A DNA stretch of 64,000 bases from NCBI RefSeq assembly GCF_001625015.1, contig NZ_LVWJ02000014.1, forward strand, positions 3,906,001 through 3,970,000, read 5' to 3'. The notes under the pieces are model-generated. The model made no database searches and was not told where the DNA came from. It worked only from the letters and a program-made list of their open reading frames with translations. Made by a program: the position numbers and the translations under genes. Shown here piece by piece: positions 1,598 to 61,397 of the stretch (its first letter is position 1; each line of letters opens with the position of its first letter). The DNA comes from Lewinella sp. 4G2. GTDB taxonomy: Bacteria; Bacteroidota; Bacteroidia; Chitinophagales; Saprospiraceae.

Positions 1598-1614
1598 GGC
1601 GCTGCCGCGGGTGC
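1598..1614 (+). repeat. Dispersed 17-bp repeat, copy 1
   Basis: One change (A12 to G) from the consensus GGCGCTGCCGCAGGTGC. It is followed by GAGGTAATTGGGAG, which fits the purine/GGG tail. It lies between the divergent MarR and GH31 genes and faces copy 2 tail to tail. Confidence 0.85.
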
Positions 1615-1649
1615 GAGGTAATTGGGAGTGGTCCCCTTCCCATTTTTTG

Positions 1650-1666
1650 ACACCTGCGGCAGCGCA
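1650..1666 (-). repeat. Dispersed 17-bp repeat, copy 2
   Basis: Minus-strand copy with changes at the two terminal positions (core of 15 bp exact). Its tail on the minus strand, CAAAAAATGGGAAG, is identical to that of copy 4 at 8879, so similarity between these two copies extends over more than 25 bp. Confidence 0.85.
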
Positions 1667-1779
1667 GAATAAATCCTAACGGTAATTGGCAACCTGCAGT
1701 GAATTCGGACGTTTCGCCTGTTTCCGCAACCAAGGTTATAACCTACCTTGCACCACCCCAAAGCACACCCCGCTCCCAC

Positions 1780-4308
1780 ATGACAAAGCTCAACAAAAAA
1801 GCTCGCCGCCCCTACGCACCGGCCGCCAACGCTACGAACAACACCGACACCGCAAATACCGCTCGCTACGACGACGTGTACTATGTCCACCGGATCGGAA
1901 AAGTGACGGGCGTGGAAGAAGTGGACCGCCAGACCTACCTCGTGCTCAGCGAAGGAGAAGCAAACCTGTACGTGCAGTTTTGGTCCCCCACCCTGTTTCG
2001 CTTTCGGATTGTGGTGAACACCCCCCGCCGCGACTTCAGCTACGGGATCGACCCGGAGGCCAAAATGGAATCGACGAAGGTGACGAAGAAGGAAGGGAAA
2101 TCCGCCTTCGGCCTCAGCACCAGTGCCCTCCGTTTGGAGATCGCCAAAGAAGACGGCCGGCTGAAGATCTCCGACAAGGCGACGCTCACGCTGATCCACG
2201 AATACGCCGAACCCTTCTACGCAAGGACCACCCTGCAAAACGGCCTGGAACAGGTCCGCATCCAACTGAGTACGGACAAAAAGGAGAAGTTCTTCGGCCT
2301 CGGCGACAAGTGCTGGGACACTGACCTGCAGGGCACCCAGTGGATGAACTACTGCGAAGACGCCTTCGCCTTCAACCGTGGCCGCGAAACGAACTACCGG
2401 GCCATCCCCTTCTACTACGGACTAAAGGAAGGCAAGGCTTACGGACTATTTCTGGACAACAGCTACCGCAGCCACTTCGACTTCAACAAGGCCGGCGACA
2501 ACCTGACTACGGTGTGGGCCGACGGCGGGGATATGAACTACTACTTCATTTACGGGCCCGACCTTAATAAGGTCGCCGAGGATTACCACGGCCTCACCGG
2601 CACCCCGGAACTCCCCCCCCTCTGGGCCTTCGGGTTCCACCAGTGCCGCTGGAGTTATTACCCCGAAAAAAGGGTGCGGGAATTGGCGCAGACCTTCCGC
2701 GATAAAAAGATTCCCTGCGATGCCATTTACCTGGACATCGACTACATGGATGGCTACCGTTGCTTTACGTGGAACAAAGAACACTTCCCCGACCCCAAGC
2801 AACTCATCAGTGACCTGAGGGAGGATAATTTCCATACGGTGGTGATGATCGATCCGGGGATCCGGGTGGACCCGGAATACCACGTCTACAAGGATATGGC
2901 GGCTAATGGCTACGCGTGTATGCGCCCCGACGGCACCCCGATGATTGGCCCGGTATGGCCACCGGAGTGTGTTTGGCCGGACTACACCAACCCGGTCGTC
3001 CGCGACTGGTGGGGAACCCTCTACCGGGAACTCTACAACGAGCAGGGCGTCAGCGGATTCTGGAACGATATGAATGAGCCGGCCATGTTCAAGGTCAATA
3101 ACCTGACCTTCCCGGACAACATCCGCCACGACATGGACGGGCAGCCTTCGCACCATAAGGAAGCCCACAACATTTACGGGTTGCAAATGACACGGGCCAG
3201 TTACGACGGACTCAAGGCACTGCAACCAGCTAAGCGGCCCTTCCTGCTGGGTCGGGCCAGCTACTCCGGTGGCCAGCGCTACGCTGCTCTGTGGACGGGT
3301 GACAACATCGCCAGTTGGGAACACCTCGAACTGGCCAACCGCCAGTGTATCCGCATGGCCATTAGCGGTTTTAGTAATATCGGTACGGACATCGGCGGAT
3401 TCGTTGACAACCCTTCACCGGAACTACTCACTCGCTGGCTTCAATTAGCTGTATTCCATCCACTTATGCGCATCCACTCAATGGGCAATAATACGGATGG
3501 CGCTGCGGAAGCGGAGGCGGACGAAGTCAAGAAAGCGGAAGAACTCAACCGCCAGGACCAGGAACCGTGGGTCCACGGCAAGGAGCACACCAAACGCAAC
3601 CGGCGGGCCATCGAGATGCGGTACCAGCTGCTGCCCTACCTCTACACCGCCTTCCAGCACCACGTCCATACGGGCCGCCCAGTCCTACGCAACCTCTTCT
3701 TTTACGACCAGGAAGATCCGATGTGTTTCAAGTTTGCTGACCAGTTCTTCTACGGAGAGGACCTACTCGTTTGTCCCGTACTAAAAGAGGGTGCTAAGTC
3801 CATGCAGGTTTACCTCCCGCAGGGTGAGTGGTACGATTTTTGGACGGGCCAACGCCACGCTGGTAAGCAGAAGATGAAAGTGAAGGTCAAGGCGGACCGC
3901 ATTCCCATCTTCGTTCGTGCCGGCGCCGTCCTACCTACGTTCGATATAGTGCAGAGCACTGCGGAGACCCAATCGCTCAACTCCGTCGAGTTAAGCATTT
4001 TTGCCGCTGACGCAGGTACCAGTGTTTTGTACTGGGACGCGGGCGATGGCTACGGGCACGAGGCCGGGCAGTTCGCTGAACGGACCTACTCCATCACGAA
4101 AAACAAGAACAAACTGACGTTGCAGCAATCCGCAGCGGGTAATTTCAATCCCAGTTTCCAGGTGGCGGAATTACGCTTCATTGGTCTGACTGCCCCACCC
4201 CGGAAAATCACCGTCGATGGCCGCAAGATCACGGCGGGCATTTACTACGGCAAGCGGGCGGTAGTAGTCAACGTACCCTTCAACTTCTCGGAGGTGGTGA
4301 TTGACTGA
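1780..4308 (+). CDS. Alpha-glucosidase, glycoside hydrolase family 31
   Basis: Retaining exo-alpha-glucosidase releasing glucose from alpha-glucosides such as maltooligosaccharides. The order is N-terminal beta-sandwich (galactose-mutarotase-like), (beta/alpha)8 barrel, and C-terminal beta domains. The GH31 signature GFWNDMNEP carries the nucleophile Asp near residue 430, and WTGDN near residue 508 carries the acid/base Asp. The frame is open upstream to a GTG at 1699, but the ATG at 1780 starts a more sensible protein of 842 residues. I see no clear signal peptide, so the enzyme is probably cytoplasmic. It may work with the pullulanase at 43055-45061 on branched alpha-glucans, although the two are far apart. 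Confidence 0.93.
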   Translation: MTKLNKKARRPYAPAANATNNTDTANTARYDDVYYVHRIGKVTGVEEVDRQTYLVLSEGEANLYVQFWSPTLFRFRIVVNTPRRDFSYGIDPEAKMESTKVTKKEGKSAFGLSTSALRLEIAKEDGRLKISDKATLTLIHEYAEPFYARTTLQNGLEQVRIQLSTDKKEKFFGLGDKCWDTDLQGTQWMNYCEDAFAFNRGRETNYRAIPFYYGLKEGKAYGLFLDNSYRSHFDFNKAGDNLTTVWADGGDMNYYFIYGPDLNKVAEDYHGLTGTPELPPLWAFGFHQCRWSYYPEKRVRELAQTFRDKKIPCDAIYLDIDYMDGYRCFTWNKEHFPDPKQLISDLREDNFHTVVMIDPGIRVDPEYHVYKDMAANGYACMRPDGTPMIGPVWPPECVWPDYTNPVVRDWWGTLYRELYNEQGVSGFWNDMNEPAMFKVNNLTFPDNIRHDMDGQPSHHKEAHNIYGLQMTRASYDGLKALQPAKRPFLLGRASYSGGQRYAALWTGDNIASWEHLELANRQCIRMAISGFSNIGTDIGGFVDNPSPELLTRWLQLAVFHPLMRIHSMGNNTDGAAEAEADEVKKAEELNRQDQEPWVHGKEHTKRNRRAIEMRYQLLPYLYTAFQHHVHTGRPVLRNLFFYDQEDPMCFKFADQFFYGEDLLVCPVLKEGAKSMQVYLPQGEWYDFWTGQRHAGKQKMKVKVKADRIPIFVRAGAVLPTFDIVQSTAETQSLNSVELSIFAADAGTSVLYWDAGDGYGHEAGQFAERTYSITKNKNKLTLQQSAAGNFNPSFQVAELRFIGLTAPPRKITVDGRKITAGIYYGKRAVVVNVPFNFSEVVID

Positions 4309-4406
4309 TTCGGATCTACTTTCAGTATCCAATCCCTGATGAGCACAACGATGAGTCAACTTTGTACGATTCGCCAGGTTGATGACTGCCACTAACCCTT
4401 GTTACC

Positions 4407-5003: not shown

Positions 5004-5040
5004 CTCGAGCGATACGGCAGACAACGAAAAGCGCAGGACT

Positions 5041-5559: not shown

Positions 5560-5561
5560 TT

Positions 5562-5725
5562 TATAGTCTGACAACCCAGGATTTGAGAATGTTAGCTAGC
5601 CCTTTTTCCGTCTAGCTGCGTTAAAAAGCCTCGCCGACGCTATGGCGTCGCCTACGTTTTTTGCCTTGCTAGACGAAAAAATGACGTCGCTACCAAAATC
5701 ACAAATCCTAAGTTGTCAGACTATA
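5562..5725. repeat. 164-bp long inverted repeat (MITE-like or giant hairpin)
   Basis: The ends form a perfect 14-bp inverted repeat (TATAGTCTGACAAC at 5562-5575 and its complement at 5712-5725). Inside, GGATTTG, GTCTAGC and GGCGACGC-type blocks are also mirrored around the centre GACGC-TATG-GCGTC near 5636-5649. It starts 3 bp after the rimM stop. It could be a non-autonomous transposon remnant or act as a terminator; only a TA flank is a possible target duplication. Confidence 0.75.
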
Positions 5726-7214: not shown

Positions 7215-8039
7215 ATGCGCCATTTCCTACTTGCCTTCTTGCTTTGCACCTGCGGCAGCGCCCTCTTCGGGCAGCAAAATCTACCCGTGGTGCAGGACGT
7301 GCTGCACCTTCGCTCTGGCGGTGAGGTGCGGGGGCAAATCCTTGAATTGAAATTCGGAGACGTTGTATTGATCCTCACGCCAAAAGGAGAGACAAAGACA
7401 TTTAAGTGGAACGAGGTGAAGCGGGTCGGATACCGCGAATTCGTCGGAGCAAGACCCAAGACCCCGACTGCTCCTGAGGAGGACACGGAAGCTACGCCCA
7501 TGCCGTTTCAACGCCCAACGCGGGCGTGGTTTCACCGGGTCCATGCACATGGTTTACTCGGCCGTGAGGCTTTACAGAATGACTTCAGCCCCGAAGAGAA
7601 TATCTATGGGCTGGGGATCAGCGCTTACCACCTACGCGCTCTCGGTAAGCTGAATTTAGGGGTTGGTATTGATTATGCCAATATGCACTTTAGCCGGGAA
7701 GAAAGGACCATCGGATTGCTCGGGACGGCGGAGCTAAACCTGCCGGTTTCGGCTTCCAAAAACTGGGGATTCAACGCCCGCTTGAATGCCGGCCCTACCC
7801 TTCCGCTGATTCGCGCCGCTTCCGGTCAGGTAATTGAATCAAGAAAACTGAGTATGCTAGTGGAGCCTTCGCTTGGCATCAATTTCAGCACCGATGGTAA
7901 CCCGTACAGCACACTCAGTATCAATCTTGGCTATCGTTTCCTGGACGCCGGTTTCACGGTCACTACCGCCACGCTCGACCTCGTCGAAAGAACCATCAAC
8001 TACCGCCGCGTCATGCTCGGGGCGGGTTATACCTTTTAG
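7215..8039 (+). CDS. Predicted outer-membrane beta-barrel protein of unknown function
   Basis: A 274-residue exported protein with an N-terminal signal peptide (residues 1-20, ending SALFGQ). Residues about 25-65 form a small domain with alternating strands (VLHLRSGGEVRGQILELKFGDVVLILTPKG, an SH3-like pattern seen in many Bacteroidota envelope proteins). From about residue 105 the protein has alternating amphipathic strands and ends in the aromatic residue (AGYTF), as in outer-membrane barrels. A copy of the dispersed 17-bp repeat forms part of its signal peptide. It lies 43 bp upstream of the sigma-factor gene. I do not recognise a specific family. Confidence 0.75.
   Translation: MRHFLLAFLLCTCGSALFGQQNLPVVQDVLHLRSGGEVRGQILELKFGDVVLILTPKGETKTFKWNEVKRVGYREFVGARPKTPTAPEEDTEATPMPFQRPTRAWFHRVHAHGLLGREALQNDFSPEENIYGLGISAYHLRALGKLNLGVGIDYANMHFSREERTIGLLGTAELNLPVSASKNWGFNARLNAGPTLPLIRAASGQVIESRKLSMLVEPSLGINFSTDGNPYSTLSINLGYRFLDAGFTVTTATLDLVERTINYRRVMLGAGYTF
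7246..7262 (-). repeat. Dispersed 17-bp repeat, copy 3 (exact, in CDS)
   Basis: Exact match on the minus strand, inside the signal-peptide codons of the barrel protein, where the plus strand reads as Cys-Thr-Cys-Gly-Ser-Ala. Tail on the minus strand is AAAGCAAGAAGGCAAG. Confidence 0.9.
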
Positions 8040-8637: not shown

Positions 8638-10072
8638 CAATTGGACTGACGACGGGCAATTTTACGACGAAGCCTGGGCCAAAATGGCCACCCAACTCGA
8701 CGCGCTACCCCGGCGCAGGAGAAGTAGCCCGTGGTGGTCAATCCTTCCCTTGCTACTGCTAGGTATAGGCTTGGCCTGGTGGATGATCTACTCCACACAG
8801 CCGGTTGAAATGATTGGTTCGCCCATAGGCAAACCTACCGCAAGTAGCGCGGAGGTGCCATTTAATAAGACGGAAGAGGCGCTGCCGCAGGTGCCAAAAA
8901 ATGGGAAGCAACAATTGGCCACCGATCTATCGATGAGTTCAACTCCACAGTTAGTGGAAGCCCAAACCCTCAGGACCAAGACGGGTAACGAAGGGCAACA
9001 AACCGGGCAGGTAAACAGAACACTGAAACGCTTTGGAAAGAGTTCCGACCTAACTCCGGCTTGGGATATTGATTTGGCAAAGTCTGATCTAGAAAGGCCA
9101 ATGGGGGATGGCAACGCCATTGCCCAAAATGAGCATAACCACTCTTTAGGTGGTGAACCAGCAGTACTTGACAGTTCACCTAAAATTAAGGATTTCTCCC
9201 CCGCATCAACCTCCCTTCAGGATATCTCCCCTACTATGCTGACGACGTCGCCCGTGACAACTTCTGTGGCGACACCTCAAACGGGCGCATCAATATTGAT
9301 TGATCCTGCGGCGCCGCTTCCGGTCAAACTGAGATCTAGCCTGACCCTTCCCGTTACCACCCCATTCAAGTCGAAGACAACCACCAATCTGTTTGTCGAA
9401 GCCGGGGTAACCAGCGCCACTTCCTTCGACAACCTTGGGTACACACTGGGTGGCGGGGTTCGCCTTAATACGGCCGGGCGGTGGTCCTTCCCCATTACAC
9501 TGGAGTACCGCTACGATCCGGAACAAATTAAAGACCTTTCCTTCGAAGAAGCAGAAGCGATGGATGTAACCGTTACCTCACCTCCAGTGATAAGCGTGGA
9601 AGCAGTATCACAAAACGTACTGGAAGATCTAGAAGCCAATGAACTTGCGTTACTAAAAACCCAGAGTATCGGTCTTCAGTTGGGTGCCCAGTACCGAGTC
9701 GGCGGGCGCCTATCCATATCCGCTGGTTTAGGGCTGGACTATCGCCTCGTGGCAAGCGGCCCCTTAGTTCAGGACCCGAGTGGCAACGTGCTACTTGATC
9801 TGCGCTACGATGGAAGTGGTGTCGGAGATGTATTCAGTGAGCGAATCACTCAAGGCAGCAACACGAATTTTTCCGCATTGGACCAAGGAATCACTAATCC
9901 GGAAATCAATCGTTTCGCCGTGACCTCCTCCGCTCGCTTACTGTACCGGATTGCTAATCGTTTGGATACTTACCTGGCGGTGCGGCACGCTCCACGTGAT
10001 TTCGCTAAAGACAACTCTTATCAGATTAGTCCCACCAGATTCGGCGTTGGCTTGCGGTACCGGTTGCGTTGA
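8627..10072 (+). CDS. Membrane protein with N-terminal cytosolic segment, one TM helix and C-terminal barrel-like domain; possible anti-sigma partner
   Basis: A 481-residue protein with an acidic N-terminal segment (residues 1-36), basic residues RRRR, one hydrophobic helix (about 38-56, WWSILPLLLLGIGLAWWMI), a long low-complexity Ser/Thr/Pro linker (about 60-230) and a C-terminal region of alternating strands (from about 245, ending FGVGLRYRLR) that looks like an outer-membrane barrel. Overlap of 11 bp with the ECF sigma gene implies translational coupling, and the layout resembles anti-sigma proteins: cytosolic sigma-binding end, single membrane pass, envelope domain. No canonical anti-sigma motif is visible. 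Contains copy 4 of the dispersed repeat, read as ALPQVP. Confidence 0.7.
   Translation: MQDNNWTDDGQFYDEAWAKMATQLDALPRRRRSSPWWSILPLLLLGIGLAWWMIYSTQPVEMIGSPIGKPTASSAEVPFNKTEEALPQVPKNGKQQLATDLSMSSTPQLVEAQTLRTKTGNEGQQTGQVNRTLKRFGKSSDLTPAWDIDLAKSDLERPMGDGNAIAQNEHNHSLGGEPAVLDSSPKIKDFSPASTSLQDISPTMLTTSPVTTSVATPQTGASILIDPAAPLPVKLRSSLTLPVTTPFKSKTTTNLFVEAGVTSATSFDNLGYTLGGGVRLNTAGRWSFPITLEYRYDPEQIKDLSFEEAEAMDVTVTSPPVISVEAVSQNVLEDLEANELALLKTQSIGLQLGAQYRVGGRLSISAGLGLDYRLVASGPLVQDPSGNVLLDLRYDGSGVGDVFSERITQGSNTNFSALDQGITNPEINRFAVTSSARLLYRIANRLDTYLAVRHAPRDFAKDNSYQISPTRFGVGLRYRLR
8879..8895 (+). repeat. Dispersed 17-bp repeat, copy 4 (exact, in CDS)
   Basis: Exact copy in the linker region of the membrane protein. 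The following CAAAAAATGGGAAG matches the tail of copy 2, so the shared sequence is longer than the core. Confidence 0.92.
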
Positions 10073-10155: not shown

Positions 10156-13100
10156 CTACCGCATAAGCATGATCTCTCCGCCGAAGTTTTTCGTCCCGCC
10201 ACCGAAGAACTCTACGGTAGCGGCGTATATGTAAAGACCGGAGTTGAGCGCCTCGCCGCGGAAAGAACCATCCCAACCTTCTTCAGTTCCATCGACGGGG
10301 AGGTTGCTAGCCTGATAGAGCTGCGTACCCCACCGATCGTAAACAATCAAAGAGCGAACGGCTACGACGCGATCTCCATCCGCCAGGGGAACGAAGTGGT
10401 CGTTGACGCCATCACCATTTGGGGAAAAGCCGGTCGGGAAATAAACGCCGATCCGTTGGTCCACAATGGCCTGCACCTGCGCCAGCGCCTGACATCCATC
10501 AATCGTCCGCACCATAACGGAGTAATTGGTGGTTTTTAACGGGCGCGCCACCGGGGTTAAGCAGTCCGTACAACTCAAACCAAGGGCGGGCGACCAAATC
10601 ACCGTATCGATTTCAGCCGGAGCAAAGTTGGTGGCCAGGGGTAATAGCGTGCTATCGCCAAGATTCAGTGTGACCTTAGTGGGCACCTCAAGGGTAAATT
10701 CCCGTAACTCCGTAATGGTCACCTCCTGATCGGATTCGCAACCCCTGACGTCCTGTACCCGGAGCGTGTAGTTACCGGGATCAAGATTAGTGAACTGGGT
10801 TTCCAAACCGTAGGTCTCCCCGCCATCAAGTGAGTACATAAATGGACCGATACCACCAGCAACCTCCCCAATGGAGATTGTTCCCGCCGGCAGACTACAG
10901 TCGGGGGAGGCAGCCACGACAGCAAAACTGTCCAGCAGGGTTTGTGTAGCCACGAGCGAAGCGACACTGGCGCAGCCGTTAATGGGGTCACTAACCCGAA
11001 GCGTATAGGTAGCCGCACCGGCGATGGTAGCTTCGGGACCAGTCGCACCCGCAAGAATCTCGCCACCGACGGTAGTCCACTCGAAGTCTAAATCGTTCGC
11101 TCCAGTAGCGCTGGCAATGACGTTGAAAGGAACGGGATCACAACCCAGGTCAACTTCAGTGGGGAGGTCGATGGACGGCGCCGTGCGGTCCTGTCCCACC
11201 ACCCAGTTGGCGCGGTCGGCGCAACCGTTGAGTGGGTCCGTAGCCATGAGTTCGTACTTACCCGGCGTAGCCACCATGAGCTCGTTGCCCGTCCCGACAC
11301 CAATGGTTTCGCCATTTGGATCGGTCCACTCGCGCATGAGTTGATTGCGGCCAGCGGTCTGGGTGCTACGCAGCATCACTTCCGGGACGCTGCACGTGAT
11401 CATGCCCGCCGGATCCGCGATGAGGTTAGGACTGAGCGTATCCATCTCTACTTCAAAAGAGAGTACGGAAGCGCAAAAGTTGTTTTCGTCCACGACTGCA
11501 ACGGTATACGGGCCAGGCTTAGTAATTCGTGCACTCAGGCCGTTGGGAGCAGTACTGACCGGCGGGCCACTCCCCCGCCATTCGTACCGGTAGGTGCTCG
11601 TACCAGACTGATTTAGGGTGGCTACCGTTTCGGTCGTCACACAGGTAAGCGTAGCGAGCGGTTCGATAGTGGCAGTAGGGGTAATAGTATCAATTGCTAC
11701 GTTGATCAACGCTGAATCACTACAGCCGTTGCCGGGGTAATCAATGCGTAACTGGTATTCTCCAGCGCTGGTCACTTGCAGTTGATCGGCGGAGAAATCG
11801 TCGAGTGCAGCGCCGCTAGTATTGGTCCAGCGATAGGTGGCAGGTTGGGTCAGAATGGAAGTCTCACTACCAATTGTCAATTCTGTGTCCCGACAATTCA
11901 GTATTCCAGGTGGTGTAAGGTTAACCACCGGTCGCTCATCATCCAAGGCGACGTTTACGGTGGCCGTAGTCACACACCCATTGGCGGGGTTGCTGACGGA
12001 TAACTGGTAGCTACCAGCAGTGGCTACTTCAAGAGTCGGCAGGTTAGGGTTAGCGGGTAATTGGCCATCAGGGGTAGTCCAGGTGTAGGTAAGTCCAGCC
12101 TCCTGAGTAGCCCCCTGGTTTAAGCTGACTTCAAGAATTGCACAACTGAGCGTAGCCGTTGGCGACAGGTCCACGACGGGCCGTTCTCCATCCTCAGTAA
12201 CCACCGTAAAGGCCTCAGTAAAGCACCCGTTGCTTTCGTCCTCCACTCTGAGGGTGTAGGTACCGGCCGCGTCGATCCGTACGTCGCGTTGGTCGGTGGG
12301 GTCAACAAAACGGCCGTCGGGACTCGTCCATGAATAGGTGATGTTCGGACCGGAAGAAGAGGTAGCTGCATCCAGGGTGGTTGCCGGATCCAGACAGGTC
12401 AGTACTGGGGCATCCGTGATCGAGGCTACGGGAGCGATGATGTTTTGATCCACGGTGATTGTAGCGGAGGAGCTACAATTGGAAGTAGGGTTCAGTACCG
12501 TCAGTGTATACGTCCCTGGTTGGTCGATGACGGGAGTGAGCTCATCTTCTCCGGATACGATGTTGCCCGTGGTCGCCCAACTCACGTTAAAGTTGCCCGG
12601 ATCGCCGATGCTACCCGCAAGGTCAAGCGTCGTCACGTCGCAAGTCAGTTCGCCGTCAGCTTCCGCCAGCGAAATGGTGGGTCTATCCTGGTCCGCCGTA
12701 ATCTCCACGGTGTTCGTGGCGATACAACCATTTACGGTGTTCGTTGCCGTGAGGGTATACGTTCCTGGAAGTGTCCCGGAGATTTGGGATTGGTCGAGAT
12801 TGGTCAGGTCTGTCGTTGGCGCGCCACTCCAGGCGTAGGTTACGTTCGCCTCGGTGGCCGCCGTCCCCAGCGTAACGGTTTCTTCGGTGCACGTTAATTG
12901 CAAGAGGGACGCATCGACGTTGGCCACTGGCGCTACGGTGTCGACCGTAATACTGGCGGCTGCGTTGCTGGTGCAACCATTGCGGCTGTTGCTGATGGTG
13001 AGCCGGTATACCCCGCCATTCGCAACGGTGGTCGGGGCGGGCTGACCCAACTCATTAGTCCATGTGTAGACCAAGTCGTCGCCCTCGGATGATCCGGTGG

Positions 13101-15252: not shown

Positions 15253-15605
15253 AGCGTAAATATAGCTAGTGCACGTATAATGGAGAGGGGTATTTCTCCC
15301 GCTCTGATGAGTTGTCGTACCTGGGTAATCAACTGACTCAACAATGGTTGCTGGCTTTCATGATTTACGGTCTCTCCATACCAACCAATCGCTTAATCAT
15401 TGCCGGCCTTTATGTACCCATTGCGGGGCTGTCGTAACTATTTAAGTGGCATCTGCATCTCTTCTCAAGCTAGGCCTTAGCTTAGCGATTATACGTTCGT
15501 CTCAGCTCAGATTCTGGTTGGAGACCAATCCTGATTCACCCAATTCCACTGCACCCGCGGCAGCGCCCAGCTCCGCAGGCAGTTGTGAAGTATACCTTTT
15601 CATGA
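15253..15605. other. 353-bp divergent intergenic region
   Basis: Separates the minus-strand adhesin from plus-strand pepT and should hold both promoters. TATATTTACG, near the adhesin start on the minus strand, resembles a -7 element but I see no matching TTG. Copy 6 of the dispersed repeat lies 39 bp before pepT. No ORF or RNA is recognisable. Confidence 0.6.
15551..15567 (-). repeat. Dispersed 17-bp repeat, copy 6
   Basis: One change (A12 to G). Intergenic, 39 bp before the pepT start. Tail on the minus strand is AGTGGAATTGGGTG, a good fit. Confidence 0.87.
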
Positions 15606-17280: not shown

Positions 17281-18867
<1,587 letters not shown>

Positions 18868-22208: not shown

Positions 22209-22225
22209 GTACCTGCGGCAGCGCC
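22209..22225 (-). repeat. Dispersed 17-bp repeat, copy 8
   Basis: One change (G16 to A). Intergenic, 24 bp after the truB stop. Tail on the minus strand is CAAGTAAAGGGTAGGGGAGA, nearly the same as copy 11. Confidence 0.87.
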
Positions 22226-22229
22226 TTAA

Positions 22230-22320
22230 TAGTCTGTAGTCTATAGTCTTTAGTCTGTAGTTCGCGGACTACAGACTTTAGACTACAGACTTTAGACTAC
22301 AGACTGTTGACTGCAGACTA
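22230..22320. repeat. Palindromic cluster of TAGTCTG heptamers between convergent genes
   Basis: Four heptamers (TAGTCTG, TAGTCTA, TAGTCTT, TAGTCTG) and their inverted complements flank the centre TAGTTCGCGGACTA near 22257-22270, giving a long hairpin. The distal end includes the glpK stop codon. It may serve as a bidirectional terminator. Confidence 0.8.
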
Positions 22321-23894: not shown

Positions 23895-25493
23895 ATGCAG
23901 ATTGACCGTATTCCCTTTCCCGACGTCCCGCAGTTTTCCGCCAAAGACGTCGCATACGCCACTGCTGATCCCCGCCTAGCCCCTTTTTACAAGTACCCCG
24001 TAACCCTTTCCGCCTTCGGCGATGTCATGCAGGACAAGGCAAAGGATGCTACCGATCGGTCGATGCTGGTGGAAGTTCTTCGGCGCCAGTACGCCAAGCT
24101 GCCGAATAATAAGCGGGCGCTGACGCAGGTGCAAAGGTTGGGGGACGAGGCCACCTTCACCGTAATTACCGCCCACCAACCGAGCCTCTTCACCGGGCCA
24201 TTGTACTTCATCTACAAGATTTGCTCGTGCCTCAACCTCGCGGCGCAACTCAACGAAACCTACCCCGAAAACCACGTCGTACCCGTCTTCGTGATGGGTG
24301 GGGAGGACCATGATTTCGCCGAGATCAACCACGCTCGCGTCAAAGGAAAGCTGGCCGTTTGGGAAGAAACAGAAGGTGGCTCCGTAGCGGCCATGCCGAC
24401 GGAAAACCTGTCCGCCGCCATCCAAAAGCTGAAAGACATTTTGGGAGAAGATGCGCTACGCTACGACCCGGTAAAGTCCCTCGTTGCTACCATCGAAAAA
24501 GCCTACCTGAACAACGACACGTACGGAGCGGCTACGGTAGAGTTGGTCCACACTCTTTTCGCTAATACCGACCTAGTTGTCGCGGACATGGCTCAACTGG
24601 AATTCAAACGAGCCTTCCTCCCCATCATGGAACGGGAACTATTCGAGCAAGTCAGCCAGCCCCTCATCGAGAAGGCGCAGGACGAACTCACCGCAGCGGG
24701 CTTCAGCGGGCAGGTGCACGCGCGGGAAATCAATCTTTTCTACCTCAGCCCGGGCCGTCGCGATCGGATTGTCCTGACGGAAAACGGCTACCAGATCAAC
24801 GATACATCGACCCACTTTTCGGAGGAGGAAATGCGCAAGGAATTACGGGATCACCCCGAGCGCTTCAGCCCTAACGTGGTCATGCGGCCCCTCTTCCAGG
24901 AGACGATCTTCCCCAACCTGGCGTATATCGGCGGTGGCGGAGAACTCGCGTACTGGTTAGAGCGGAAGGAGCAATTTGCGGTCTTCAAGCTCAACTTCCC
25001 AATGCTCATTCGCCGCAACTCCGTACTGTGGATCGACCCGCGCAGTGGCAAGAAAATTAACCAATTGGGAACCGACTTCCGTGCCTTTTTTCAGCCTACG
25101 GATAAGGTCATTAAGGATTACGTTGCCGAACACTCTCGTAATGACCTGAGCCTGGATGAGGCGATGCAGCAAATTGAAACACTTTACGATCAGTTGGCGG
25201 CACGGGCTAAGCAAGTCGACCCTACCCTGGAGAAACACGTCCTCGCCATGGGCGCTCACCAGAACAACAAACTGGAGAACCTCGAGGAACGCCTCCGCCG
25301 GCGGGAGAAGCGAAAGTATACGGAAGCCGTAGAACGCATTCGATTTGTGCGTAGCCATCTATTCCCTGGCGACAGCCTGCAGGAGCGAAAGGACAATTTT
25401 CTGAATCTCTATCTAGACCACGGGCCGGACGTCATTCCCACGCTGATCAGGCACCTCGATCCGCTTACGCCCGGCATGGTGGTGATCCACTAG
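23895..25493 (+). CDS. bshC: Bacillithiol biosynthesis protein BshC (putative cysteine-adding enzyme)
   Basis: The family is associated with the last step of bacillithiol synthesis, addition of cysteine to glucosaminyl-malate. The 532-residue protein has the Rossmann-like core with [39 protein letters not shown] and the C-terminal coiled coil ([22 protein letters not shown] pattern, residues about 440-485). The ATG at 23895 is chosen because [15 protein letters not shown] is the usual BshC beginning. Its presence implies bacillithiol as a low-molecular-weight thiol, common in Bacteroidota. Confidence 0.93.
24116..24132 (+). repeat. Dispersed 17-bp repeat, copy 9 (one change, in CDS)
   Basis: C8 changed to A, in bshC, read as ALTQVQ. 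Tail AAAGGTTGGGGGACG fits moderately. Confidence 0.7.
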
Positions 25494-27177: not shown

Positions 27178-28062
27178 ATGAATATTTCCGTCATCGGAGC
27201 CGGCCAGATGGGTGCCGGAATAGCACAGGTCTTTGCCGTAGCGGGCCACAGGGTCAGCCTGGTTGACATCAGCCAGGACGCGCTCGACCGGGGGCTTGCG
27301 GCCATTCACAAAAGTCTGGGTCGTGTCCTGAAAAAGGAGCGCATCACCCAGGCGGAGATGGATGGTGCCCTGGCTAACGTATCCCTCCACTCCGACCTCG
27401 GCGCCGGGGTAGCCAATGCGGAACTCGTCATCGAAGCTGCTACCGAGAACGTCGACCTCAAGCTTAAGATCTTCTCCGACCTCTCCCGCTTAGCACCTGC
27501 GGCAGCGCCCCTGGCATCGAATACCTCTAGCATCAGTATCACGCGCATTGCCGCCGCTACGGACCGGCCGGAAAAAGTGATTGGCATGCACTTTATGAAC
27601 CCGGTTCCCATAATGAAACTGGTGGAGGTGATCCGCGGCTACGCAACGGATGATGCCACTACGAAGTTGGTAATGGACTTGAGCGAATCGCTCGGTAAAG
27701 TGCCCGTAGAGGTGAAGGATTATCCAGGATTCGTGGCCAATCGCATCCTGATGCCGATGCTAAATGAAGCGATGAATACGTTGTGGGAAGGTGTTGCTGG
27801 CGTTAGCGAAATTGACACCGTCATGAAGCTGGGCATGGCGCACCCGATGGGACCGCTGCAATTGGCGGATTACATTGGGCTTGACACCTGTCTCGCCATC
27901 CTCCGGGTAATGCAAGATGGTTTCGGACGCGGTCACTACCAACCCTGTCCCCTCCTCGTCAACATGGTGATGGCGGGCAAGCTGGGGCGGAAGTCCGGGG
28001 AAGGATTTTACGATTACAGTGGTGGCGGAAAAGAACTCGTCGTCAGCAAAAGCTTCGCTTAA
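27178..28062 (+). CDS. hbd: 3-hydroxyacyl-CoA (3-hydroxybutyryl-CoA) dehydrogenase
   Basis: NAD(P)-dependent oxidation of 3-hydroxyacyl-CoA. The Rossmann motif is VIGAGQMGAGIAQ at the N-terminus; ASNTSSISITRIA, the catalytic region GMHFMNPVPIMKLVEVIRG (His-Asn) and PGFVANRILMPMLNEA follow. 294 residues, standard. The six residues APAAAP just before LASNTSS are encoded by copy 10 of the dispersed repeat and occupy the place where homologues have unrelated residues of the same number. The stop shares one base with the kdsA start (TAATG), indicating coupling. Confidence 0.95.
   Translation: MNISVIGAGQMGAGIAQVFAVAGHRVSLVDISQDALDRGLAAIHKSLGRVLKKERITQAEMDGALANVSLHSDLGAGVANAELVIEAATENVDLKLKIFSDLSRLAPAAAPLASNTSSISITRIAAATDRPEKVIGMHFMNPVPIMKLVEVIRGYATDDATTKLVMDLSESLGKVPVEVKDYPGFVANRILMPMLNEAMNTLWEGVAGVSEIDTVMKLGMAHPMGPLQLADYIGLDTCLAILRVMQDGFGRGHYQPCPLLVNMVMAGKLGRKSGEGFYDYSGGGKELVVSKSFA
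27493..27509 (-). repeat. Dispersed 17-bp repeat, copy 10 (exact, in CDS)
   Basis: Exact copy within the dehydrogenase gene, read on the plus strand as Ala-Pro-Ala-Ala-Ala-Pro. Confidence 0.9.
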
Positions 28063-40218: not shown

Positions 40219-40676
40219 ACCTGGTGAGTTACTGGGTGGTCCACTACCAAACAGGGTAGCTTCTTACCTACAAAAGTGTAATACAAAGACGACAAAGTCC
40301 GCGCGGTTAAGTCCGCAAGACCGTCGGCCGACAAAAAAGAGGGGCTTGCAACCAACCTTTTTATACGACGACCAAACATCTGGCCCACGGCCGGCAAAAG
40401 TAATCAAATCGTCACGACTTCCACCATCAAATTGCGGGGCCACGGTAACATGCGGTACATTCTCAGGTCATCCGGCTCCCCTACCCTTTGCCTCGCACCT
40501 GCGTCAGCGCCCCCATTTTACTACGACGGCGACTGGCAAATCCCCGCCGGAATGACACGTATCTTGCTGAGTACCAAATAACAGCGTAGGCACCGTGTTA
40601 GCATTTGACTCGAAGTCGTACATTAGCCCGGAGACGCATTATTTACTATCGTAGCAATCTTGATAAATTTAGCTCC
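40219..40676. other. 458-bp divergent intergenic region
   Basis: Separates the TonB receptor operon from the LacI-family regulator. Copy 11 of the dispersed repeat lies at 40495-40511. CACTTTTG on the minus strand near 40276-40283 is close to a -7 element for the receptor operon. No LacI-type palindromic operator is obvious. Confidence 0.5.
40495..40511 (-). repeat. Dispersed 17-bp repeat, copy 11
   Basis: One change (C8 to A). Intergenic. Tail on the minus strand, GAGGCAAAGGGTAGGGGAGC, matches that of copy 8 at most positions. Confidence 0.85.
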
Positions 40677-43019: not shown

Positions 43020-43036
43020 GGCGCTGCCGCGGGTGC
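43020..43036 (+). repeat. Dispersed 17-bp repeat, copy 12
   Basis: One change (A12 to G). In the gap between pullulanase and purM, 125 bp before the purM start. Tail CAGGAGATTGGCAAG resembles that of copy 1. Confidence 0.85.
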
Positions 43037-45451: not shown

Positions 45452-46204
45452 TTAACGACGGCCTAACAAGTACCACGCCATCAAGCCCCCAAAAATATCA
45501 ATTGCCGTATGGAGTAGGATCAATGGCCACAGGGTTTCGGTCCTTAGGTAAAAGAAGCCAAACAGGATGGCCATAACCACAATTTTCAGGACGGCCTTCC
45601 AACCTTGATAAAAATGCCCCAAACCGAAAGCCACCGCCGGTATTAACATCGCACCTGCGACAGCGCCCGTACCATCTCCGAAGAGTTCCAACAGATAAGT
45701 GATCATGAAACCGCGGTAAACGATCTCTTCGCCAATGCCCGCCGCAAAAGCCAGAAATATGAAGTTGAGGAATTGGGTTGCGGAGGATGGCAGAAAACCC
45801 AGTTTGCGGAATCCCTTTCGCGTTTCTTCCCGCCGCTCCGCACTTCCCGCCTCCAGGAGGACATCGAGTAAGTAAAGACCAACGAAAGCGGATAGAACGA
45901 TGACTGCCGTCAGATCATACGGTTGCTTCCCCCACCCAAGACCAATCTCCGTAAGCGGCCGGCCGGCAAACCACCAACCCGCCAGGACTAGGGCAGCCAT
46001 CGTAAATAGCAGACCTCCGTTACTGTAGTAAAGGTGGGTTTTCATCCGCTGCGTCCAGTGAATACGCTTACTGCTCTTTGCGCGGCGGTAGCTCGTCACG
46101 AATAAGATGGCCGGGAAGACGATGCCCAGCAGAACGAAGAGGATGTGCAGATGAAGTTGGATAGGAGTCGGACTAGCGAATGAGCCATGAAAAGGTGCGG
46201 CCAC
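45452..46204 (-). CDS. CPBP family intramembrane glutamic endopeptidase (CAAX protease-like)
   Basis: An integral membrane protease. The three motifs are present: EEIVYRG in GIGEEIVYRGFM (Glu pair and Arg), FGLGHFYQG (His) and LLHTAID. At least six hydrophobic helices can be counted. The frame is open to an ATG at 46315, only 21 bp from the divergent barrel gene, and its first 37 residues look non-native; a GTG at 46204 is the more likely start, but this is uncertain. The segment coding TGAVAGAM contains copy 13 of the dispersed repeat. Confidence 0.85.
   Translation of the reverse strand: MAAPFHGSFASPTPIQLHLHILFVLLGIVFPAILFVTSYRRAKSSKRIHWTQRMKTHLYYSNGGLLFTMAALVLAGWWFAGRPLTEIGLGWGKQPYDLTAVIVLSAFVGLYLLDVLLEAGSAERREETRKGFRKLGFLPSSATQFLNFIFLAFAAGIGEEIVYRGFMITYLLELFGDGTGAVAGAMLIPAVAFGLGHFYQGWKAVLKIVVMAILFGFFYLRTETLWPLILLHTAIDIFGGLMAWYLLGRR
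45651..45667 (-). repeat. Dispersed 17-bp repeat, copy 13 (one change, in CDS)
   Basis: C8 changed to T, in the protease gene, where both the repeat and the gene read along the minus strand (Gly-Ala-Val-Ala-Gly-Ala). The tail does not fit, so this may be a coincidence. Confidence 0.5.
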
Positions 46205-48364: not shown

Positions 48365-48381
48365 GGCGCTGCCGCAGGTGC
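48365..48381 (+). repeat. Dispersed 17-bp repeat, copy 14 (exact)
   Basis: Exact, 47 bp before the AsmA start at 48429 in a 250-bp intergenic region. The tail CGAATTTAGGGACCAAG is shared with copy 15 at several positions (both then read GGACCAAG). A GTG at 48378 within the repeat opens the AsmA frame but is unlikely to be used. Confidence 0.92.
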
Positions 48382-52902: not shown

Positions 52903-53742
52903 TTATTTGCTGGGGCGGATGATTCCCCGAAACCCGAGGTGGTTCAGCCCGCTGTCGGCCGGAGTAGTTTGCCGTTGCTTCAGATTAAATCCGGTACAGT
53001 AGGAGGTGCTGCAGAGGAAGCTTCCCCCTTTGATGATGTAGGTTCCGTCCGGAGCTTTTGAGGCGGTCCATTCCCACACGTTGCCAGAGATATCGTATAG
53101 GCCGTTTTCCGCGGGCGGAAACGATTTTACCGGAGCGATTCCGGGGAATCCATCGAGCACTTCGTCGTTGAAGGGGAAGGGGCCCTGCCACCAATTGCCC
53201 GGGAATTTACCGTCCGGTACCATCTCCGTCCCCCAGGGGAAATCACCGTATTTGCCCGACTGGCTGGCGGCATGCATCCATTCTTTCTCGGTGGGTAATT
53301 CCTTGCCCGCCCACTTCAGGTAAGCCTGCACATCACGCATACTTACTTGGGTTACGGGCGTATTTGCGGGCGCTGCCGCAGGTGCAGCATTCTGGACCAA
53401 GGAATCAGGACCGGGCACTGGGCCGAGGGGCTGATCCCAAGTAGCACTATCAACCGGTAACCAGTTGAGGGAATCCCTGTTAAAGACACCCGACCAGCCA
53501 AATTCCTCCGCTTCGGTGACGAAATTAGTGGCTTCCACGAAAGCTCGAAATTCGGCTACGGTCGTCTCCGTGGCGTCCATAAAAAAGCCTTCCGATTCTC
53601 CGTTGGGAGCGATCCAGACCATTCCGTCTGGCACTTCGGTTGGAGGCACCGGTCCGGACTGCTTGCACCCGTACCCTGCACCCGCGGCAGCGCACAAAAA
53701 GGCGAGTAATGTGATCAGTCGTAAGGACGGGCGGCGGAACAT
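52903..53742 (-). CDS. Formylglycine-generating enzyme (SUMF1/FGE type), lipoprotein-like export signal
   Basis: Converts the Cys of C-x-P-S-R in sulfatases to formylglycine. The C-terminal motif GGSFLCSTSYCTGF carries the two copper/thiol-active cysteines (Cys244, Cys249) at the spacing of human FGE; AYLKWAGKELPTEKEWMHAA, DFPWGTEM, FPGNWWQGPFPFNDEVLDGFPGIAPVKSFPPAENGLYDISGNVWEW and NHLGFRG also follow FGE closely. 279 residues. The N-terminus is hydrophobic with a Cys after GAGYG (near residue 26), suggesting export. Residues about 117-122 (APAAAP) come from a repeat copy and look like a six-residue insertion relative to FGE. Likely partner: the sulfatase at 17281-18867. Confidence 0.9.
   Translation of the reverse strand: MFRRPSLRLITLLAFLCAAAGAGYGCKQSGPVPPTEVPDGMVWIAPNGESEGFFMDATETTVAEFRAFVEATNFVTEAEEFGWSGVFNRDSLNWLPVDSATWDQPLGPVPGPDSLVQNAAPAAAPANTPVTQVSMRDVQAYLKWAGKELPTEKEWMHAASQSGKYGDFPWGTEMVPDGKFPGNWWQGPFPFNDEVLDGFPGIAPVKSFPPAENGLYDISGNVWEWTASKAPDGTYIIKGGSFLCSTSYCTGFNLKQRQTTPADSGLNHLGFRGIIRPSK
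53369..53385 (+). repeat. Dispersed 17-bp repeat, copy 15 (exact, in CDS)
   Basis: Exact copy inside the FGE gene, where the minus strand reads Ala-Pro-Ala-Ala-Ala-Pro. The flank AGCATTCTGGACCAAGG shares GGACCAAG with copy 14. Confidence 0.92.
53678..53694 (-). repeat. Dispersed 17-bp repeat, copy 16 (two changes, in CDS)
   Basis: Position 1 changed to T, A12 to G. In the signal-peptide codons of the FGE gene, read as CAAAGA. This is the third copy in a signal-peptide region. Confidence 0.65.
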
Positions 53743-58561: not shown

Positions 58562-58596
58562 TGATCTAGCCCCTCATTACCAGGAGTTTCAATAGC

Positions 58597-59577: not shown

Positions 59578-60356
59578 TGCGTGCTACGGATTACACCTTC
59601 GAAGTCTGTTTGCAGTCGCCCGAAGACGCGCTAGAAGCCCAGCGGGGCGGCGCCCAGCGCTTGGAACTTTGCGCTGCGCTGGTGGAGGGGGGCATTACGC
59701 CCAGCCTGGCTAGCATACAGCAGTGCCGCGATTTGGTCGACATCGACATCATGGTCATGATCCGCCCGCGCGGAGGGGACTTCCTATATTCTGAGCGGGA
59801 GCTCGAGGTCATGCATCGTGACATCGAGCACTGCGTGCGCATCGGCGTGACGGGCGTAGTCTTCGGCGTACTCGACGAGGTAGGAAATGTGGCGCTGCCG
59901 CAGGTGCAAAGTTTAGTCGCCACGGCCGGCGGATTACAAAAGACCTTCCACCGCGCTTTCGACGTAGCCCGGGACCCATGGGAAGCCCTCGAGCAATTAG
60001 TTGAAGTAGGTATGGACCGCATCCTCACCTCCGGCCAGGCGGGAACTGTCCCGGAAGGGATTGCACTCATCAGGGAGTTGGTCGCCAAGGCGGGCAATCG
60101 GATTGGCATCCTCCCCGGCTGTGGGATCACCCCAGCTAACGTGGTCGATGTCCTCCAAGGAACGGGAGCGACGGAATTTCATGCTACGGCTTTCGAGCAG
60201 CTAATTTCCCCAATGCAGTACCGAAACGAAAGCGTGTACATGGGTATTCCCGGCCTGCCGGAGTATGAAAGGCAGGTAACTTCCGCGCTTGAAGTGCGGC
60301 GGTTTCTTGACGCCATTCGGGGGATGAATCCCTACGGGACCGCAACAAATGCGTAG
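59577..60356 (+). CDS. cutC: Copper homeostasis protein CutC
   Basis: A TIM-barrel protein long linked to copper tolerance, with the true role still debated. Family signature: FEVCLQSPEDALEAQRGGAQRLELCAALVEGGITPS at the N-terminus, MIRPRGGDFLYSERE, TFHRAFDVARDP, RILTSGQ, and GILPGCGITPANV. 259 residues from the ATG at 59577; the frame runs further upstream, but inside the asparaginase gene. Copy 17 of the dispersed repeat is within it, read as ALPQVQ. It is the middle gene of a compact three-gene run. Confidence 0.93.
   Translation: MRATDYTFEVCLQSPEDALEAQRGGAQRLELCAALVEGGITPSLASIQQCRDLVDIDIMVMIRPRGGDFLYSERELEVMHRDIEHCVRIGVTGVVFGVLDEVGNVALPQVQSLVATAGGLQKTFHRAFDVARDPWEALEQLVEVGMDRILTSGQAGTVPEGIALIRELVAKAGNRIGILPGCGITPANVVDVLQGTGATEFHATAFEQLISPMQYRNESVYMGIPGLPEYERQVTSALEVRRFLDAIRGMNPYGTATNA
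59891..59907 (+). repeat. Dispersed 17-bp repeat, copy 17 (exact, in CDS)
   Basis: Exact copy in cutC, read as Ala-Leu-Pro-Gln-Val-Gln. Tail AAAGTTTAGTCGCC fits only at the start. Confidence 0.88.
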
Positions 60357-60385
60357 TTTCACCTTCCGTAAATTAGCAAGTGATC

Positions 60386-61336
60386 ATGACCAATTCTCGC
60401 CGCACCTTCATCCGTAATTCCGTCATCGCCGCCGCCGGCCTGCCCCTTTTGAAATGTGGTAGTGGGGACGGAAAATCCACTACAACACCAATGAATCCCA
60501 GCACTGAAATGGACAACTCTGCCCTCCCCTACCTGGATACCATCGGCCTGCAGTTGTGGTCCGTCCGCGACCAGTGGCAGGAGGATGCACCGACCACCTT
60601 CAAAGCGCTCGCTGAGATTGGATACCAGCAATTAGAATTGATGGATACCCGCCACGCCGAGGAACTCGTCCCCCTGGCCAAAGAGCACGGTATGGCCGTC
60701 AACAGCAGCTTCATCAATTGGAATACGGTAACCGGTGGCTGGCAGTACACGCCGGATGACACCCCCTTCGAATACGCTGAAGTGATTGACCAGGCCGCCG
60801 AACATGGTCTGAGTCACCTCGTCTTTGGCTACCTCCGCCCCGAGGAGCGGGAAACCGCCGACCAGTGGAAGAAATTGGCCGACGACCTCAACGTAGCCGG
60901 CGAAAAAGCGAAGGCCAGTGGACTACAGCTGACCTATCACAACCACAACTTTGAGTGGGATCCGATCGCTGGCACTACCGGCTTCGACATCCTGATCGAT
61001 CGCATGGATGGTGATCTCGTCCCCTTCGAATTGGACGTTTTCTGGGCCCAGATCGCTGGCCAGGACGCCAAGGCTACGATGACGAAAATCAAGGACCGTT
61101 TGGAACTGCTTCACCTCAAACAACTGCACCGTGGCACCCCGGTCGTCACTAGGATTGCGGACGTGCCCGAGAATGCTTTTGAGGAGTTGCCCGACGGCGA
61201 TATGCCCATTAAGGACCTCATGCGTTTCGGGAAGTCCCTTGGCGTCAAGTATTGTATGGTGGAGCAGGACGGCAACTACGATACTTCCAGTTTGAAGAGC
61301 GTCGAAACCAGTTTGGAGTTCCTGCGGAAGGCTTAG
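60386..61336 (+). CDS. Sugar phosphate isomerase/epimerase-like TIM-barrel protein, exported
   Basis: A 316-residue protein with a twin-arginine-like signal (RRTFIRNSVIAAAGLPLLKC, with Cys near residue 24 as possible lipidation site) and a xylose-isomerase-like TIM barrel: LDTIGLQLWSVRDQW, YQQLELMDTRHAEELVPLAKEHG, LTYHNHNFEWDPI (metal His/Asn), VPFELDVFWAQIAG (Glu), LLHLKQLHRGTPV and VKYCMVEQDGNYDTSSLKSVETS. Substrate unknown. A GTG at 60380 is two codons upstream. It lies 29 bp after cutC. Confidence 0.88.
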   Translation: MTNSRRTFIRNSVIAAAGLPLLKCGSGDGKSTTTPMNPSTEMDNSALPYLDTIGLQLWSVRDQWQEDAPTTFKALAEIGYQQLELMDTRHAEELVPLAKEHGMAVNSSFINWNTVTGGWQYTPDDTPFEYAEVIDQAAEHGLSHLVFGYLRPEERETADQWKKLADDLNVAGEKAKASGLQLTYHNHNFEWDPIAGTTGFDILIDRMDGDLVPFELDVFWAQIAGQDAKATMTKIKDRLELLHLKQLHRGTPVVTRIADVPENAFEELPDGDMPIKDLMRFGKSLGVKYCMVEQDGNYDTSSLKSVETSLEFLRKA

Positions 61337-61380
61337 GGTTGGTTTGTAACGTTGAGGCTGATCCCGTACCCATTTCCTCT

Positions 61381-61397
61381 GCACCTGCGGCAGCGCC
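61381..61397 (-). repeat. Dispersed 17-bp repeat, copy 18 (exact)
   Basis: Exact. Intergenic, 120 bp before the rimO start. Tail on the minus strand is AGAGGAAATGGGTACGGG, a close fit to the consensus tail. Confidence 0.92.

What the first reader, a model, noticed from the sequence alone, without database searches (positions are those of the whole stretch)
1598..61397. A 17-bp motif, GGCGCTGCCGCAGGTGC, repeated at least 18 times in 64 kb on both strands
Seen directly: exact copies at 7246, 8879, 27493, 48365, 53369, 59891 and 61381; one or two changes at 1598, 1650, 10473, 15551, 18811, 22209, 24116, 40495, 43020, 45651 and 53678. Two internal positions vary most (position 8, C to A/G/T; position 12, A to G). 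A random 17-mer should not recur even once in this window. The motif is not a palindrome and is about evenly split between strands. Eight copies are between genes although genes cover about nine tenths of the window. Inference: a genome-wide signal such as a DNA-uptake sequence (compare USS/DUS of Pasteurellaceae and Neisseria, roughly one per kb or so), a binding site for a nucleoid or segregation protein, or a REP-like element. I know of no such motif described for Bacteroidota.
Basis: partly seen in the sequence, partly recalled or inferred. Interest (0 to 1): 0.88.

Follow-up and report, generated by a model that had tools for sequence, protein, structure and literature searches.

The report
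Strand-read self-DNA signal in Lewinella
A 17-letter DNA word with a purine-rich tail is scattered about a thousand times through the genome of a Lewinella bacterium and most of its sister species, spaced as if each DNA strand carried its own set, and it most likely labels the bacterium's own DNA for exchange, much as uptake sequences do in Haemophilus and Neisseria.

Summary
Observation confirmed: 21 matches (≤3 mismatches) in the window against 0.38 expected; 934 copies of GGCGCTGNCGCNGGTGC genome-wide, 471/463 by strand. The wider form GGCGNNNNCGCRGGTGC has 195-1425 copies in 17 of 20 other genomes of the genus (Lewinella/Neolewinella), 5, 35 and 6 in the other three, and 0-6 in 59 genomes outside it. 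It does not behave like a mobile repeat: most alignable sites stay in place in orthologous DNA while flanks and spacer diverge. Genic copies use five of six frames without transcription bias. A purine-rich tail of about 20 nt belongs to the signal, inside genes too.

New here: copies on the SAME strand exclude each other within about 2 kb (6 pairs, 75 expected); opposite-strand copies do not (98 against 76). Chance-like matches show no exclusion; sister species repeat the pattern. This suggests a signal read on one strand.

Best explanation (0.5): a self-DNA signal for natural transformation, working like USS/DUS but read strand-specifically; no type IV pilus ATPase was found. A Chi-like recombination signal is the main rival. 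Uptake is untested.

The parts
1598..1614 (+). motif copy, 1 change (position 12), intergenic; first arm of inverted pair
1650..1666 (-). motif copy, 2 changes (positions 1 and 17), intergenic; second arm of inverted pair
7246..7262 (-). motif copy, exact, in a called gene near its start
8878..8894 (+). motif copy, exact, in gene
10473..10489 (-). motif copy, 1 change (position 8), in gene
15551..15567 (-). motif copy, 1 change (position 12), intergenic
18811..18827 (+). motif copy, 1 change (position 8), in gene near its start
22209..22225 (-). motif copy, 1 change (position 16), intergenic
24116..24132 (+). motif copy, 1 change (position 8), inside bshC; same aligned site held by dialect copies in nine relatives
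27493..27509 (-). motif copy, exact, in 3-hydroxyacyl-CoA dehydrogenase gene
40495..40511 (-). motif copy, 1 change (position 8), intergenic
43020..43036 (+). motif copy, 1 change (position 12), intergenic
45651..45667 (-). motif copy, 1 change (position 8), intergenic by my gene calls, inside an uncalled open frame
48365..48381 (+). motif copy, exact, intergenic, overlapping a called start codon
53369..53385 (+). motif copy, exact, in gene (FGE-sulfatase domain)
53678..53694 (-). motif copy, 2 changes (positions 1 and 12), intergenic
59891..59907 (+). motif copy, exact, in cutC; ortholog in G020 carries a variant at the same place, ungapped
61381..61397 (-). motif copy, exact, intergenic

Best explanation
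The motif (frame GGGCG-N4-CGC[A/G]GGTGC, here GGCGCTGNCGCRGGTGC, plus a purine-rich 3' tail of about 20 nt) is a self-DNA signal, kept and spread because DNA that carries it is preferentially acquired or recombined. It works like the USS of Pasteurellaceae and the DUS of Neisseriaceae. It differs in being read strand-specifically, probably on single-stranded DNA or by a machine moving in one direction, so each strand carries its own self-spaced set. SHOWN: number, genus-wide spread, dialects, in-place conservation at most alignable sites, tail, same-strand exclusion, no pilus ATPase in the genomes searched, presence of ComEC, DprA and an HHH (ComEA-like) protein. INFERRED: that the process is natural transformation, that reading is on single strands, and that the 2-4 kb exclusion length reflects the length of the DNA molecules concerned.
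For: Count and spread. Dialects in which the four middle bases shift between species (sites found by their conserved ends); in the own genome 255 of 290 wide-pattern sites have CTG. In-place conservation: the bshC site has a copy at the same aligned place in nine relatives (8 with 0, 1 with 1 mismatch), and the other seven motif-rich genomes have a copy with one mismatch on the opposite strand nearby, while the three motif-poor genomes have at least 4 mismatches on either strand. 11 of 14 distinct site-by-genome comparisons keep the motif at no more than 1 mismatch in alignments 71-86% identical. Tail also inside genes. No transcription bias (111 same, 114 opposite). Same-strand exclusion: 6 pairs against 75 expected under 2 kb; of 271 exact copies, 2 have an exact same-strand neighbour within 2 kb and 115 an opposite-strand one (random positions 30% each; 3-mismatch matches 63 and 67 of 195). 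Sister species: 3 same, 28 opposite. In a toy model only strand-specific redundancy gives same-strand exclusion with no effect on opposite pairs. Competence genes. At least two changes of the motif-poor state on a bshC tree. Four of the five 20-kb stretches under 50% G+C have no copy.
Against: Nothing here shows uptake, and I found no report of transformation in Lewinella (0 papers; none of the 15 listed of 1,301). ComEC, DprA and the HHH protein are also present in the motif-poor G001, G007 and G011, so they do not track the motif. No receptor was found. Neisserial DUS is best recognised as double-stranded DNA (passage in PMC12061091), so single-strand reading has little precedent for uptake. 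The toy model is uncalibrated: its molecule length was chosen by me and its copy densities are two to four times the real one. Convergent pairs are enriched under 2 kb (65 against 37.5) while divergent ones are not (33 against 38), which the simple model does not predict. One of the five AT-rich stretches has three copies. The conservation test covers only alignable sites (7 of the 13 exact sites of the two query stretches, counting), and a conserved motif itself helps an alignment to extend.
Confidence: 0.5

Rival explanations
1. Chi-like recombination signal: an AddAB/RecBCD-type nuclease running in from a DNA end reads the motif in one orientation only, stops degrading and loads RecA. Copies in the same orientation within a processing tract are redundant, while the two orientations serve opposite ends.
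For: Strand-specific redundancy on a scale of a few kb is what orientation-dependent reading predicts. PDDEXK_1 proteins in open frames of 998-1147 aa (AddB-like by length and domain, my label) are found in 20 of 21 genus genomes; the 55%-complete G010 has only a shorter, weaker match.
Against: Known Chi sites are 5-8 nt and change slowly (recalled); this signal is 17 bp plus tail, changes between species of one genus and was not found above a handful of copies in other genera. The motif-poor G001, G007 and G011 keep the AddB-like gene. No leading-strand skew, unlike E. coli Chi (recalled).
Confidence: 0.2
2. Ordinary double-stranded uptake sequence, orientation irrelevant, as in Haemophilus and Neisseria.
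For: Same hallmarks: count, dialects, in-place upkeep, intergenic preference, close inverted pairs.
Against: A strand-blind signal should make opposite-strand neighbours as redundant as same-strand ones; they are not (toy model). I could not test whether USS or DUS show the same exclusion.
Confidence: 0.15
3. Intracellular site for a chromosome-organising or repair protein that acts with a direction.
For: Self-spacing on each strand; genome-wide spread.
Against: No replication-strand or transcription bias; information of this size at about 1000 sites, with dialect turnover, is hard to maintain by weak per-site selection (inference); at least two changes of state within the genus.
Confidence: 0.1
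4. Close same-strand copies are merely purged because direct repeats recombine and delete the DNA between them, so the spacing carries no functional message.
For: Would affect only same-strand pairs and fade with distance.
Against: Other exact 14-mer repeats in the same DNA are overwhelmingly direct at 100-4000 bp (e.g. 3457 direct, 92 inverted at 1-2 kb; overlapping words of tandem-like duplications inflate these, so the control is rough). 3-mismatch matches show no exclusion.
Confidence: 0.04
5. REP, MITE or other mobile repeat.
For: Copy number; inverted pairs; two gapped site comparisons, one of them a duplicated site in G003; gaps beside 5 of 13 (1-8 residues) and 2 of 8 (1 and 5 residues) genic copies, the five-residue one fitting an insertion.
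Against: The core sits in place without gaps in most orthologous comparisons (8 of 13, 6 of 8, bshC, 12 of 14); conservation fades along the tail rather than ending sharply; Y1 transposase number does not follow motif number.
Confidence: 0.01

Closest known systems
USS of Pasteurellaceae (Haemophilus influenzae)
   Same: Non-palindromic core plus degenerate flank, about a thousand or more copies, both strands, within and between genes, some inverted pairs, related dialects (partly recalled; passages of PMC1939737, PMC7811141 and PMC12616744 seen).
   Different: Purine tail instead of AT tracts; same-strand exclusion of about 2 kb (not tested in USS); no pilus ATPase found; different phylum; lower density (about 1 per 5 kb against about 1 per kb).
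DUS dialects of Neisseriaceae
   Same: Shared core with drifting positions between species; [quoted passage not shown]
   Different: Longer core, purine tail, no pilus ATPase found, strand-specific spacing (not tested in DUS).
Chi sites of RecBCD/AddAB
   Same: G-rich, read in one orientation, about 1 per 5 kb in E. coli (recalled).
   Different: Much longer, no leading-strand skew, quick turnover within a genus.
Riemerella natural transformation (Bacteroidota)
   Same: ComEC, DprA and a protein with a helix-hairpin-helix domain; no recognised pilus part among the eight essential genes named (PMC8459023 abstract and section 19).
   Different: No motif of this kind; the candidate k-mers visible in the passages I saw are A-rich (PMC7965970).

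Membership tests
DUS/USS uptake sequences | Hundreds or more copies, far above chance, balanced between strands | tested here: met
DUS/USS uptake sequences | Kept in place by point change, not insertion | tested here: met
   exceptions: 2 of 14 gapped, 5 of 13, 2 of 8
DUS/USS uptake sequences | Species dialects around a conserved core | tested here: met
DUS/USS uptake sequences | Preference for intergenic DNA | tested here: met
   145 of 370 copies in 18% of the bases
DUS/USS uptake sequences | Type IV pilus machinery with a minor-pilin receptor | tested here: not met
   No full-length T2SSE ATPase in the 13 genus genomes searched; only short weak matches in frames of about 300-1000 aa, six of them at or just over the cut-off, the own one below it. 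Pilins and secretins were not searched.
DUS/USS uptake sequences | Inner-membrane channel ComEC and DprA | tested here: met
   ComEC in 13 of 13 genus genomes searched; DprA in 20 of 21
DUS/USS uptake sequences | Motif raises DNA uptake or transformation | not testable with these tools
   needs an experiment
Chi sites | Orientation-specific reading | tested here: inconclusive
   Same-strand exclusion fits but is indirect
Chi sites | Skew toward the leading strand (as in E. coli, recalled) | tested here: not met
   141 against 144, strand judged by GC skew of each stretch
REP/MITE repeats | Insertion footprint in orthologous DNA | tested here: not met
   exceptions as above
REP/MITE repeats | Association with RAYT (Y1) transposase | tested here: not met
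   six Y1 matches in G000; none detected in G018, which has 825 copies; closeness of single copies to these genes was not measured
FtsK-orienting (KOPS-like) signals | Strong strand polarity toward the terminus (recalled) | tested here: not met

The most novel reading that the evidence does not exclude
A new class of self-DNA signal read on one DNA strand only, serving a pilus-free DNA-exchange machinery in Bacteroidota; each chromosome strand carries its own self-spaced set whose exclusion length records the length of the exchanged single strands.
Probability: 0.35. Interest if true: 0.95.

Novelty: new variant of a known kind. Interest (0 to 1): 0.86.

Why it matters
Long genome-wide uptake sequences are known to me only from Pasteurellaceae and Neisseriaceae, both using type IV pili (recalled, and stated in passages). 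A third, independent case in Bacteroidota without a detectable pilus ATPase would show that such self-marking arises by more than one machinery. The strand-specific spacing offers a purely genomic readout of how the DNA is read and how long the exchanged pieces are, and it can be looked for at once in Haemophilus and Neisseria. The three motif-poor species among the rich ones give a ready comparison for finding the receptor.

Tried and rejected
Coding repeat: rejected, five of six frames used among 173 genic copies; by my reading of the codons the unused one would give Cys residues and a stop at TGA. Transcription terminator: the 1598/1650 pair folds strongly but lies between divergently transcribed genes; of 24 neighbour pairs under 300 bp one sits between convergent genes. 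Clustering of all copies: not seen; counts per 20 kb in 60 stretches have a variance/mean of 0.85. Directional double-strand uptake: would deplete convergent or divergent pairs; neither is depleted like same-strand pairs. HHH protein, AddB-like protein and DprA as markers of motif loss: present in motif-poor genomes as well. Viral contigs: 5 stretches with one match each to the own dialect plus tail in IMG/VR; not followed. Literature: ten searches; several lists were capped (25 of 262, 15 of 75, 15 of 1,301, 10 of 37, 8 of 13 papers shown). The 17-mer itself is in none of the held papers. Apart from candidate k-mers for Riemerella and Flavobacterium (PMC7965970), the listings showed no uptake sequence for Bacteroidota; most subscription journals and all preprints are outside that library. 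Papers seen: PMC8459023 outline, abstract and section 19; PMC7965970, PMC1939737, PMC2397512, PMC5217627, PMC3630211, PMC12061091, PMC7811141 and PMC12616744 passages only; the rest as search listings. A script failed and was rerun corrected; only saved code.
Full report
WHAT WAS CHECKED. The window holds 21 matches with up to three mismatches to GGCGCTGCCGCAGGTGC; 0.38 are expected. The window is part of a 5.21 Mb genome, contig C14. Organism: the nearest named relatives by BshC are Neolewinella aurantiaca, N. agarilytica and Lewinella MAGs at 61% identity, so the genus is Lewinella/Neolewinella (inference).

GENOME AND GENUS. GGCGCTGNCGCNGGTGC occurs 471 times forward and 463 reverse in the own genome, the reversed control 0. 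In relatives that exact form is rarer, because the middle drifts: stretches of nine relatives show a shared frame GGGCG-N4-CGC[AG]GGTGC-(A)-RRG. GGCGNNNNCGCRGGTGC counts 1006 in the own genome; 195-1425 in 17 of 20 other genus members; 5, 35 and 6 in G001, G007 and G011; and 0-6 in 59 genomes of other genera of the family and order; controls in the genus are at most 11. In the own sample 255 of 290 such sites have CTG in the middle, while other species prefer CGG, GGG or mixtures. On a BshC tree the poor genomes fall in two places, G001 with G007 next to G004/G017, and G011 apart, so the signal changed at least twice, most simply by loss; the tree rests on one gene and has four open forks.

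SHAPE. In 1.264 Mb sampled, mismatch classes over the 15 fixed positions were 208, 77 and 27 for 0, 1 and 2, far from decay by free mutation. Conservation extends from about -4 to about +38: often TTTG before the core, then RRG, AA and G-rich steps in which pyrimidines are avoided, fading with distance. The tail is present in genic copies as well (6.1 bits over 25 columns, against 8.9 in intergenic ones). Single-mismatch copies use preferred changes (G1>T 23, T6>G 15, G16>A 14, G7>C 13 of 99), as expected of tolerated variants.

PLACE. 145 of 370 copies (at most 1 mismatch, 1.664 Mb) are intergenic, in 18% of the bases; genic copies lie 111 with and 114 against transcription (gene calls are my own simple model). 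No preference for the G-rich strand (141/144; the skew is weak). Of 83 stretches of 20 kb, five have under 50% G+C; four of these have no copy and one has three. Close inverted pairs occur; 1598/1650 folds to -48 kcal/mol against -25.8 for shuffles.

IN PLACE, NOT INSERTED. bshC was compared in 20 of 21 genus genomes (none found in G003). The copy in the window (24116) has counterparts at the same aligned codons in nine relatives, eight without and one with a mismatch to GGCGNNNNCGCRGGTGC. Of the other ten genomes, the seven that are motif-rich (G004, G009, G012, G013, G016, G017, G020) carry a copy with one mismatch on the opposite strand close by, and the three motif-poor ones (G001, G007, G011) have at least 4 mismatches on either strand; three outgroups have at least 5. 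So at this locus the state follows the genome, 17 of 17 rich and 0 of 3 poor, without gaps in the motif; the protein sequence may also constrain it. For sites in 40 kb of G014 and G002, orthologous DNA (alignments 71-86% identical) from five relatives gave 21 rows, 14 distinct site-by-genome comparisons after removing duplicate loci: 8 conserved with no mismatch, 3 with one, 1 absent (four mismatches), 2 gapped. Only 7 of the 13 exact sites of those stretches could be aligned, and the motif itself helps alignments to extend, so this overstates conservation. For genic copies, 13 of 173 own and 8 of 63 relatives' copies could be aligned, some at only 40-45% identity; 8 and 6 of these had no gap within six residues. 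One of the gapped ones (five residues) would fit an insertion.

STRAND-SPECIFIC EXCLUSION. This is the main new result. Among 370 copies, same-strand pairs closer than 2 kb number 6 against 75 expected; at 2-2.5 kb the ratio is 0.39, at 2.5-4 kb 0.56-0.73, and 1 or above from 4 kb. Opposite-strand pairs under 2 kb number 98 against 76 (convergent 65 against 37.5, divergent 33 against 38). The null places copies uniformly; the real intergenic preference would raise the expectation for all close pairs, so the same-strand deficit is if anything understated and part of the opposite-strand excess may come from it. Built-in control: of 271 exact copies 2 have an exact same-strand copy within 2 kb and 115 an opposite one; for single-mismatch copies 5 and 30 of 99; for two mismatches 5 and 14 of 36; for three-mismatch, mostly chance, matches 63 and 67 of 195; random positions give 30% for both. 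So intact copies exclude each other, and only on their own strand. In relatives (pairs from seven of the nine sampled) pairs under 2 kb are 3 same and 28 opposite, 2-4 kb 16 and 30, 4-8 kb 42 and 38, beyond 8 kb 56 and 53 (a looser site definition gave 5 and 22 under 2 kb).

WHAT IT MEANS. The simplest reading is that a redundant copy is not kept. Redundancy among same-strand copies only means that + and - copies serve separate molecules or separate directions. A toy birth-death model agrees: strand-blind redundancy depletes all close pairs, one-sided coverage depletes convergent pairs most, and only strand-specific redundancy depletes same-strand pairs alone (uncalibrated, copy densities two to four times the real one). 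Reading on single-stranded DNA, as in the later steps of transformation or at a processed break, is the simplest such situation; the purine-rich tail, poor in self-pairing, would suit it (inference).

MACHINERY. ComEC is in all 13 genus genomes searched, DprA in 20 of 21, an HHH (ComEA-like) protein in 20 of 21, the missing one in both being 55% complete. No pilus ATPase: in the 13 genus genomes searched PF00437 gave only short matches, the own one below cut-off, while a genome of another family gave a full-length match at 410 bits. Riemerella, also Bacteroidota, transforms with ComEC, DprA, ComF, RecA and four proteins unlike known competence parts (PMC8459023), so lack of pili does not exclude uptake.

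COMPARISON. In count, dialects, in-place upkeep, flank and intergenic preference it works like USS and DUS. It is not filed as a member: the pilus ATPase that goes with those families was looked for and not found, and uptake is unproven. In Neisseria DUS spacing matches conversion-fragment length (abstract of PMC2397512). For Haemophilus one paper cites an even spacing and itself finds uptake independent of orientation (PMC1939737). In the passages I saw no strand-specific exclusion is described, but I could not test those genomes.

VERDICT. A real, genus-wide DNA signal, very probably functional, with a striking strand-specific spacing; most likely a self-DNA signal for genetic exchange. Chi-like function is the main rival.

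Noticed in passing
L078 (G000:C14:3283001-3303000); L077 (C14:3234001-3254000) also AT-rich: L078: AT-rich (38% G+C) stretch with about ten repeats mostly ending in CGTTGGGCG, looking like a large integron cassette array with long attC sites (my label), with group II intron matches inside; it has no motif copies. L077 is likewise AT-rich (39% G+C) and motif-free; its repeats were not examined.
   Followed up: partly
window about 22226-22265 and genome-wide: ACTACAGACT / ACTATAGACT words are among the most enriched k-mers of the genome sample; one run abuts the motif copy at 22209.
   Followed up: no
L117:11794-12006 (G002) and many contigs of G010: A dispersed element of about 200 bp with over 30 listed matches in G010, most 84-91% identical, and an internal inverted repeat: a mobile-type repeat in the same genus, unlike the motif.
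   Followed up: no
G001, G004, G007, G009, G012 near comEC: An AddB-like PDDEXK_1 gene lies within about 8 kb of comEC in five relatives; in the window's genome the two are some 500 kb apart.
   Followed up: no
L147-L150 (G015): Motif copies in convergent pairs whose tails are complementary, able to form long hairpins (read by eye).
   Followed up: no
own genome, convergent pairs under 2 kb: Convergent pairs are enriched (65 against 37.5 expected) while divergent ones are not; unexplained by the simple strand-reading model.
   Followed up: partly
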